Shown: piece after piece, positions 448 through 1,517 of the stretch
Layout: every line of letters begins with the position of its first letter
Numbering within the stretch: the first letter of the stretch is position 1
Source of the DNA: Nitrospinota bacterium
Lineage (GTDB): Bacteria; Nitrospinota_A; UBA7883
Reading direction: 5' to 3'
Assembly: GCA_029881335.1 (NCBI GenBank)
Contig: JAOUMU010000024.1
Location: 1-33,933 of the forward strand
DNA: 33,933 bases
Notes under the pieces: generated by a model
The model's database searches: none
What the model saw: the letters and a program-made list of their open reading frames with translations, nothing else
What the model was told of the DNA's origin: nothing
Translations under genes and position numbers: made by a program

Positions 448-663
448 ATGAGTGATGAATTCTGGGCGAAGCTGGACGCATATCTATTTAAATTTCTGGG
501 CCTGGTACTGGGCGGTGGGGGGCTTGCGGGTCTGTTGCTGAACAATCCCATAGAGATGGTGCTCCACAACACATATGGAGTTACCATAGTTCTGGTCTTT
601 GGGTTGATGGGGGGATACTCCTTCTTTTCACTTCTGATGGGAGTGGTCAGGAAGCCTGAATAA
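448..663 (+). CDS. Small membrane protein (about 71 aa), hypothetical
   Basis: MSDEFWAKLDAYLFKFLGLVLGGGGLAGLLLNNPIEMVLHNTYGVTIVLVFGLMGGYSFFSLLMGVVRKPE; two hydrophobic segments. The ORF track start at 430 is probably too far upstream; ATG at 448. Confidence 0.5.
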   Translation: MSDEFWAKLDAYLFKFLGLVLGGGGLAGLLLNNPIEMVLHNTYGVTIVLVFGLMGGYSFFSLLMGVVRKPE

Positions 664-786
664 AAAAACCCGTGGAGGAGAGGGGGGAAACCCCCACGGG
701 TTTCACTTTGCAATTCCTTGAGTTTCAGTTGGGGTAAGGAGGGGAAACTCAAAGCCTCGCAAATACTTGCATTCTGTCCTTACGTT
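661..786 (-). ncRNA. Predicted sigma54-dependent sRNA, copy A (about 125 nt)
   Basis: Minus strand: TGGCATA-N4-TTGCAT promoter, start predicted near 786, hairpin with C-rich loop (718-752), then terminator hairpin with T-tract (662-703). Similar in sequence and layout to copy B. Confidence 0.7.
662..703 (-). terminator. Rho-independent terminator of sRNA copy A
   Basis: Minus strand AAACCCGTGGGGGTTTCCCCCCTCTCCTCCACGGGTTTTTTT: stem CCCGTGG/CCACGGG followed by seven T. May also end the convergent small ORF at 448-663. Confidence 0.75.
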
Positions 787-795
787 TATACTTAG

Positions 796-813
796 ATGCA
801 ATGGCTATGCCAT
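796..813 (-). promoter_or_regulatory. Sigma54 (-24/-12) promoter of sRNA copy A
   Basis: Minus strand ATGGCATAGCCATTGCAT; GG and GC separated by 10 nt as in TGGCAYR-N4-TTGCW. Confidence 0.7.
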
Positions 814-874
814 CGCATATCTGTTTGTATTTCCAGATATTATCTTGTTTTGCCTCTGCAGTGTGTATGACTTT

Positions 875-909
875 GTCCGAATTGACTGACATTAATTGTA
901 TTTTTCGGA
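875..909 (-). promoter_or_regulatory. Candidate enhancer-binding site (UAS) for sRNA copy A
   Basis: Plus strand GTCCGAATTGACTGACATTAATTGTATTTTTCGGA, about 89-123 nt upstream of the predicted start. Blocks GTCCG, GACAT and ATTTnTC recur at nearly the same distances upstream of copy B. Confidence 0.45.
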
Positions 910-938
910 TATTTCTGCCCGACGTTGAGGCTGAGCCT

Positions 939-983
939 AAAATAAATAAAGCCCGTGGAAGAGAGAGGGCTCCTTCCACGGGC
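939..983 (-). terminator. Rho-independent terminator of sRNA copy B
   Basis: Minus strand GCCCGTGGAAG-GAGCCCTCTCT-CTTCCACGGGC (11-bp perfect stem) then TTTATTTATTTT. Confidence 0.75.
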
Positions 984-1067
984 TTCTAAATTGCAGCGCC
1001 TTGAGCTTTGATTGGGGGTAGGAGGGAAGCTCAAGACCCTACAAACTTTACTGCAATGCAACTTCAC
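940..1067 (-). ncRNA. Predicted sigma54-dependent sRNA, copy B (about 128 nt)
   Basis: Minus strand: TGGCACG-N4-TTGCAT promoter, start predicted near 1067, hairpin with C-rich loop (1001-1034), then terminator hairpin 951-983 with T-rich tail TTTATTTATTTT. Confidence 0.72.
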
Positions 1068-1076
1068 TGCGATATT

Positions 1077-1094
1077 ATGCAATGAGCGTGCCAT
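1077..1094 (-). promoter_or_regulatory. Sigma54 (-24/-12) promoter of sRNA copy B
   Basis: Minus strand ATGGCACGCTCATTGCAT: full match to TGGCACG-N4-TTGCA. Confidence 0.82.
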
Positions 1095-1156
1095 ACCCTA
1101 AGTGATTGATTCTTTACAGTAATACAAAAACCTCGAGTATCAAAGGTGTCATGGTG

Positions 1157-1188
1157 GTCCGGTTACAGGACATAACTGTGCATTTATC
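1157..1188 (-). promoter_or_regulatory. Candidate enhancer-binding site (UAS) for sRNA copy B
   Basis: Plus strand GTCCGGTTACAGGACATAACTGTGCATTTATC; shares GTCCG, GACAT and ATTTnTC with the copy A site at matching distance from the predicted start. Confidence 0.45.
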
Positions 1189-1517
1189 ACACTCAGGAGG
1201 GTTTTTACTCCATCCTTCCCCGCTCCCATGTTCGCGTAACGTAGTTTTATCTTCGATTTATGGGGGCCCCCAAGGCTTCGAGGCCTCCTCCGCGTATAAT
1301 TTCCTTCGGCTATTCCACCCTTGGCCACCTGCGGAGGCCATAAATAGCGGTTTTGGAGCCAAGTCCGGCTGTCGTGAAACAGGGCGCCTGTCCCGGATCA
1401 GGACATGGGATGCAGAATGGGGAGAGATATGTTTACAGTTGTGGAGGTGAGATTCTTCCAATGGATGGAGAATGGCTCTCTAGCTCCATTCCACCCCGAC
1501 AAGGCACGCCTGTGCCG

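What the first reader, a model, noticed from the sequence alone, without database searches (positions are those of the whole stretch)
661..1190. Tandem pair of sibling sigma54-dependent small RNA genes
The intergenic region holds two similar cassettes in the same order on the minus strand: upstream block, sigma54 promoter, C-rich-loop hairpin, terminator with T-tail. Predicted transcripts run 786 to about 661 and 1067 to about 940 (roughly 125 nt each). No convincing ORF explains the conservation. Sigma54-driven sibling sRNAs are known (Vibrio Qrr RNAs, Pseudomonas CrcZ/CrcY), but this pair does not resemble those in sequence as far as I can recall, so it may be an undescribed family.
Basis: partly seen in the sequence, partly recalled or inferred. 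Interest (0 to 1): 0.9.

Follow-up and report, generated by a model that had tools for sequence, protein, structure and literature searches.

The report
Iron-sulphur-linked sigma-54 small RNA family
Two sibling genes here make short, hairpin-rich regulatory RNAs, members of an undescribed family found across one order of the Nitrospinota bacteria, and they share their on-switch with the genes that build iron-sulphur clusters, which suggests an RNA arm of an iron or iron-sulphur stress response in bacteria that lack the usual RNA helper protein Hfq.

Summary
The window (a Nitrospinota genome) carries two sibling cassettes on the minus strand, each with a sigma54 -24/-12 box, a hairpin with a C-rich loop and a terminator hairpin with a second C-rich loop: RNA A about 786-661, RNA B about 1067-940. 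A covariance model finds the RNA in all 12 held genomes of the order (5 families) and not convincingly in 12 other Nitrospinota genomes. 20 of 28 base pairs show compensatory change. A sigma54 box precedes 14 of 16 copies. The own genome has a third copy. Rfam has no match at threshold.

New: 54-85 nt upstream of most boxes lies an inverted repeat GACA-N4-TGTC. Searched order-wide together with a sigma54 box, it returns 17 sites (reversed control 0), mostly before the SUF operon, NifU, ferritin/rubrerythrin genes and this RNA. A PAS-type sigma54 activator with a conserved C-x10-C-x2-C tracks the regulon (9 of 12 genomes; 0 of 12 outside). Hfq is absent from all 23 genomes of the class.

Most likely: an Hfq-independent, anti-Shine-Dalgarno, C-rich-loop small RNA induced with Fe-S assembly, which represses other mRNAs, analogous to FsrA/IsrR/RyhB but under sigma54. 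Targets, signal and activator binding are unproven.

The parts
661..786 (-). sRNA A, predicted transcript (about 126 nt)
   Evidence: sigma54 +1 spacing to T-tail; R1 match 661-766, 95.4 bits
940..1067 (-). sRNA B, predicted transcript (about 125 nt)
   Evidence: sigma54 +1 spacing to T-tail; R1 match 944-1048, 104.1 bits
797..812 (-). sigma54 -24/-12 promoter of A, TGGCATAGCCATTGCA
   Evidence: 0 of 500 shuffles as good; conserved in G005 and in other families
1078..1093 (-). sigma54 -24/-12 promoter of B, TGGCACGCTCATTGCA
   Evidence: 0 of 500 shuffles as good; conserved
707..763 (-). hairpin 1 of A; loop TTTCCCCTCCTTACCCCAACT
666..703 (-). terminator hairpin of A with C-rich loop, then T-tail
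991..1044 (-). hairpin 1 of B; loop CTTCCCTCCTACCCCCAATC
949..985 (-). terminator hairpin of B with C-rich loop, then T-rich tail
1157..1180 (-). enhancer-like element of B: CACAGTTATGTC (7/8 to GACA-N4-TGTC) running into TGTCC-TGTAACC-GGAC
   Evidence: 75 nt before the sigma54 box, shuffle p 0.06 alone; family-wide sum 110 vs 85.1 +/- 2.5, 0 of 2000
874..891 (-). putative enhancer element of A: TGTC-N10-GACA
   Evidence: conserved in G005_A; fit to the consensus is weak
448..663 (+). convergent gene for a 71-aa membrane protein (MSDEFWAKLDAYLF...), the conserved downstream neighbour
   Evidence: sequence read directly; homologues next to the sRNA in G001, G005, G006, G007, G008, G009

Best explanation
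The cassettes are two copies of one trans-acting small RNA family of an order of Nitrospinota. A sigma54 activator (most likely the PAS-AAA+-Fis protein with a conserved C-x10-C-x2-C) binds GACA-N4-TGTC repeats about 55-85 bp upstream and drives the RNA together with the SUF operon, NifU-type scaffolds and ferritin-like genes when iron or Fe-S clusters are short or damaged. The RNA presents C-rich, anti-Shine-Dalgarno loops (CCCUCCU-N-CCCC in hairpin 1, a second C-run in the terminator loop) and blocks ribosome binding on other mRNAs without Hfq, probably sparing iron by lowering non-essential iron proteins. Shown by computation: RNA structure, sigma54 promoters, shared promoter signature with Fe-S and iron genes, co-occurrence with the activator, absence of Hfq. 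Inferred: transcription, which activator binds, the inducing signal, pairing to Shine-Dalgarno sequences and the target set.
For: Covariation: 20 of 28 pairs with change on both sides, 93.5% of cells paired, 0 of 500 shuffles as good, slid controls at most 50%. Sigma54 box 25-55 nt before the RNA model start in 14 of 16 copies. RNA in 12 of 12 genomes of the order, no convincing copy in 12 other Nitrospinota genomes. Enhancer plus sigma54 pattern: 17 sites in the order, 0 for the reversed pattern; a slightly stricter form finds none in the 12 genomes outside. Downstream genes: NifU-like plus SUF operon in 4 genomes, NifU/BFD protein in 2, bacterioferritin- and rubrerythrin-like proteins in 2. 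Activator orthologue full length or partial in 9 of 12 genomes and 0 of 12 outside; three cysteines and recognition helix kept. G006, which lacks a sigma54 box before its copy, also lacks the activator and the pattern sites. Hfq 0 of 23 in the class. IsrR, LhrC and NfeR1 act on mRNAs through C-rich loops without needing Hfq, IsrR and NfeR1 at Shine-Dalgarno regions (PMC9410917, PMC4132741, PMC10746234).
Against: No expression data. A search for starts with extended complement GGGG-NN-AGGAGG-ATG gave 2 hits against 4 for the reversed control, so no extended-pairing target was found. The enhancer motif is weak at copy A. The activator was not found in G001 (89% complete), though its sRNA has a perfect sigma54 box. 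PilR-type and other sigma54 activators also exist in these genomes, and I did not profile them. The own genome's SUF operon was not itself seen behind the motif.
Confidence: 0.6

Rival explanations
1. A real sigma54 sRNA family, but its job is general stress or envelope control (like LhrC or NfeR1), and the shared enhancer motif reflects an activator with a mixed regulon rather than iron sparing.
For: The regulon also includes small secreted repeat proteins and a 36-aa membrane peptide of unknown role; C-rich anti-SD loops are used in many non-iron sRNAs; no iron target was shown.
Against: 8 of 17 motif sites lie before SUF, NifU or ferritin-like genes.
Confidence: 0.3
2. The hairpins sequester a protein (a C-rich single-strand binder) instead of pairing with mRNAs, in the manner of CsrB or CrcZ sponges.
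For: Two C-rich loops per RNA, up to three copies per genome, no extended mRNA complement found.
Against: Only two motifs per RNA; no bacterial protein known to me with this role; the loop is a close match to the complement of a Shine-Dalgarno sequence.
Confidence: 0.07
3. Not separate RNA genes: conserved bidirectional terminators and regulatory DNA of the flanking small membrane protein gene.
For: The convergent gene at 448-663 ends at the terminator of A and is a conserved neighbour.
Against: Hairpin 1, its covariation and a sigma54 box at a set distance serve no terminator; copy C lies at another locus without that neighbour.
Confidence: 0.03

Closest known systems
alpha-r14 / NfeR1 (Rfam RF02344 ar14)
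   Same: About 123-nt Hfq-independent sRNA with anti-Shine-Dalgarno C-rich loops (PMC10746234); the closest Rfam model for B and for the G003 copy, and a weak match for A, all below threshold.
   Different: Three hairpins with CCUCCUCCC and activation by LsrB in alphaproteobacteria; here two hairpins, CCCUCC-N2/3-CCCC, sigma54 promoter, 23-33 bits against a cutoff of 58.8.
IsrR / FsrA / RyhB iron-sparing sRNAs
   Same: C-rich loops (IsrR, FsrA), Hfq-free action (IsrR), made when iron is short; a plausible functional parallel because this RNA shares its promoter signature with SUF and ferritin genes.
   Different: Controlled by Fur repression, not sigma54; no sequence or synteny relation seen; iron-protein targets not shown here.
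LhrC (Listeria, RF00616)
   Same: Several similar copies, CU-rich motifs in stem-loop and terminator (PMC4132741).
   Different: LisRK control and other sequence; 27 bits against a cutoff of 110.
Sigma54-dependent sRNAs: Qrr, CrcZ/Y, GlmY, Pxr
   Same: Made from sigma54 promoters by enhancer-binding proteins; Qrr and Crc also come as siblings.
   Different: No Rfam match even at E 5; other loops, other regulons, Hfq-dependent in the Qrr and Crc cases (general knowledge).

Membership tests
ar14 / NfeR1 (RF02344) | covariance-model score at or above the curated cutoff (58.8 bits) | tested here: not met
   27.6, 23 and 33 bits
ar14 / NfeR1 (RF02344) | three hairpins each with CCUCCUCCC | tested here: not met
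   two hairpins; loops CCCUCCUACCCCC and CCCUCCUUACCCC
ar14 / NfeR1 (RF02344) | Hfq-independent repression by pairing at ribosome binding sites | not testable with these tools
   Hfq absent, pairing not shown
LhrC (RF00616) | covariance-model score at or above 110 bits | tested here: not met
   27 bits for A
Qrr or CrcZ/CrcY | match to the Rfam models | tested here: not met
   not among matches up to E 5
Sigma54-dependent sRNA genes (functional class) | -24/-12 promoter at the right distance, kept in relatives | tested here: met
   14 of 16 copies
Sigma54-dependent sRNA genes (functional class) | transcript lost in an rpoN mutant | not testable with these tools
   needs RNA work
Iron-sparing sRNAs (functional class) | co-regulated with iron or Fe-S homeostasis genes | tested here: met
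   shared GACA-N4-TGTC plus sigma54 signature; by motif only, not by expression
Iron-sparing sRNAs (functional class) | represses mRNAs of iron-containing proteins | tested here: inconclusive
   extended-complement search found no excess; only a few stretches could be scanned by duplex energy

The most novel reading that the evidence does not exclude
An order of Nitrospinota without Hfq controls Fe-S cluster assembly through a sigma54 activator with a cysteine-bearing PAS sensor, and the same activator makes a multi-copy anti-Shine-Dalgarno sRNA as the repressing arm: a Fur-independent, Hfq-independent counterpart of RyhB/IsrR built on sigma54.
Probability: 0.4. Interest if true: 0.82.

Novelty: new variant of a known kind. 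Interest (0 to 1): 0.74.

Why it matters
Sigma54-driven sRNAs are known from few systems and, as far as the papers searched show, none is tied to Fe-S assembly. The comparative regulome papers looked into here (PMC4641369, PMC12316311) name no sRNA and no suf genes under sigma54. An sRNA family with strong covariation in a class without Hfq, with a predicted activator and regulon, makes a testable case for how trans-acting sRNAs work without Hfq in an environmentally important, little-cultured phylum.

Tried and rejected
BLASTN against plasmids: none. Rfam at threshold: none; sub-threshold ar14, LhrC, suhB and ErsA hits read as shared C-rich loops, not membership. Phylum-wide weak model hits (G012, G014, G021, G000:C88, G004:C178) rejected: no matching hairpin or sigma54 box, ordinary terminators. 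Terminator pattern in 85,488 species: Nitrospinota copies plus actinobacterial palindromes and a Geobacteraceae/Desulfuromonadaceae element of different sequence. Extended Shine-Dalgarno complement as target signature: no excess. Duplex scan of held stretches: not genome-wide and start codons ambiguous, so not used. FlrA-like motif GTCA-N6-TGAC (PMC4641369) does not match the enhancer here. PilR considered as activator from a remembered TGTC-type site and PilR-like proteins next to a pilB-like gene; not excluded.

Full report
What is there. On the minus strand of window 650-1200 lie two cassettes of the same build: a sigma54 box (B 1093-1078, A 812-797), about 20-30 nt of leader, a long hairpin with a C-rich loop (B 991-1044, A 707-763), a second hairpin ending in a T-tail (B 949-985, A 666-703) whose loop is also C-rich. 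Predicted starts at 1067 and 786 give RNAs of about 125 nt. Both fold better than shuffles (z -5.3 and -3.4). No Rfam family matches at threshold.

Distribution. The pair found relatives in all seven family genomes by BLASTN. A covariance model from ten copies found the RNA in 12 of 12 genomes of the order, in five families, with 36.7 to 51.8 bits in the four families outside the training set. The 11 genomes of the sister order and one other Nitrospinota genome gave nothing convincing. Relatives bear public names such as Nitrospinota bacterium 8_1_May_SF_Bin17 and UBA7883, so the window is a Nitrospinota genome. The own genome has a third copy at G000:C162:7751-7848. The tandem A/B pair occurs only in G000 and G005, so it is a recent duplication. 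Outside the genus the single copy sits in a conserved place, as a rule between a gene for a 243-aa membrane protein and a convergent gene for a small membrane protein, i.e. it is inherited vertically.

Structure. On 16 copies 93.5% of cells pair, 20 of 28 pairs have changes on both sides, and none of 500 shuffles or slid versions comes near. The alignment was made by sequence (MAFFT), not fitted to the fold. The loops keep CCCUCC-N2/3-CCCC in most family copies and a C-run of the CCCCCUC type in the other families.

Promoter and regulon. A sigma54 box stands 25-55 nt before the model start in 14 of 16 copies, including all the distant families. The exceptions are G006 and G005_C. Upstream of it most copies have an inverted repeat GACA-N4-TGTC (best matches 54-85 nt before the box in most copies). 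Summed over the copies the match is 110 against 85.1 +/- 2.5 in shuffles (0 of 2000), although copies A and some others match poorly alone. The motif was defined on these sequences, so the independent test is the order-wide search of motif plus sigma54 box: 17 sites, 0 for the pattern read backwards; a slightly stricter form finds none in the 12 genomes that lack the RNA. Sites precede a NifU-like gene followed by sufB and the SUF operon (G004, G005, G007, G010), a NifU/BFD protein with peptide deformylase (G003, G007), bacterioferritin- and rubrerythrin-like genes (G008, G009), a small secreted repeat protein (G000, G005, G008, G010), and the sRNA (G007, G011); three sites are unclear.

Activator. 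G000, G003 and G007 have about 20 sigma54 activators each. One, a PAS-AAA+-Fis protein, has full-length or partial orthologues in 9 of 12 genomes of the order and in none of the 12 others, where only its AAA+ part finds paralogues at 44-49% identity. Its PAS domain keeps C-x10-C-x2-C and its recognition helix is nearly invariant. G006 lacks this protein, the motif sites and the sigma54 box before its RNA. G001 and G009 lack it too but are 89% and 73% complete. This is guilt by association only; PilR-type proteins are an open alternative.

Mechanism. Hfq is absent from all 23 genomes of the class, while the same search finds it in control genomes and in G023. C-rich loops acting without Hfq are documented for NfeR1, IsrR and LhrC. 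Pairing of the exposed loops with Shine-Dalgarno sequences is therefore the likeliest action, and co-control with SUF and ferritin-like genes points to an iron-sparing or Fe-S stress role. The direct search for long complementary starts gave no excess, so targets remain unknown; short seeds around AGGAGG would be invisible to that test.

Comparison. It is not a member of ar14, LhrC, Qrr or Crc by the tests made. It works, I think, like IsrR/FsrA in logic and like NfeR1 in pairing, but under sigma54.

Noticed in passing
L034 (G000:C162) about 1946-2120; L026 (G004:C5); L008 (G005:C597) at its contig end: Divergent from the third sRNA copy, a sigma54 box precedes a tiny gene for a 36-aa membrane peptide (MHYAAEKKDNMLFVFEGIRHILAIALVAALMIYVIF in G000, a close relative in G004).
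   Followed up: partly
L081 1126-1443 (-), L080, L076, L074: Small secreted proteins with repeats like (W/F)DKxDFGxDLYGLPN behind the same enhancer plus sigma54 signature in four genomes; no Pfam or NCBIfam match and only five relatives in the large protein set.
   Followed up: partly
whole class, 23 genomes: No Hfq gene found in any genome of the class, including assemblies estimated 100% complete.
   Followed up: partly
L027 (G006:C12) 1501-1750: The G006 copy keeps the RNA but has no recognisable sigma54 box, and the genome lacks the PAS activator: a possible promoter switch in a smaller (1.7 Mb) genome.
   Followed up: partly
L048 3189-3278 (-), L053 1472-1570 (-), L054 6489-6577 (+): Desulfuromonadaceae and Geobacteraceae share a conserved intergenic element (CCTGCGCAGAATTCGGGGC...GGCCTGTCCC) ending in a CCCGTGGAGG terminator with a CCUCC loop, without a sigma54 box of this type; possibly another C-rich-loop sRNA.
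   Followed up: no
L059 (G000:C88:15332-15397), L030 (G004:C178:5545-5611): A terminator with a CCCCCC loop after what looks by eye like a peroxiredoxin gene in two species resembles the sRNA terminator; possible 3' UTR element.
   Followed up: no
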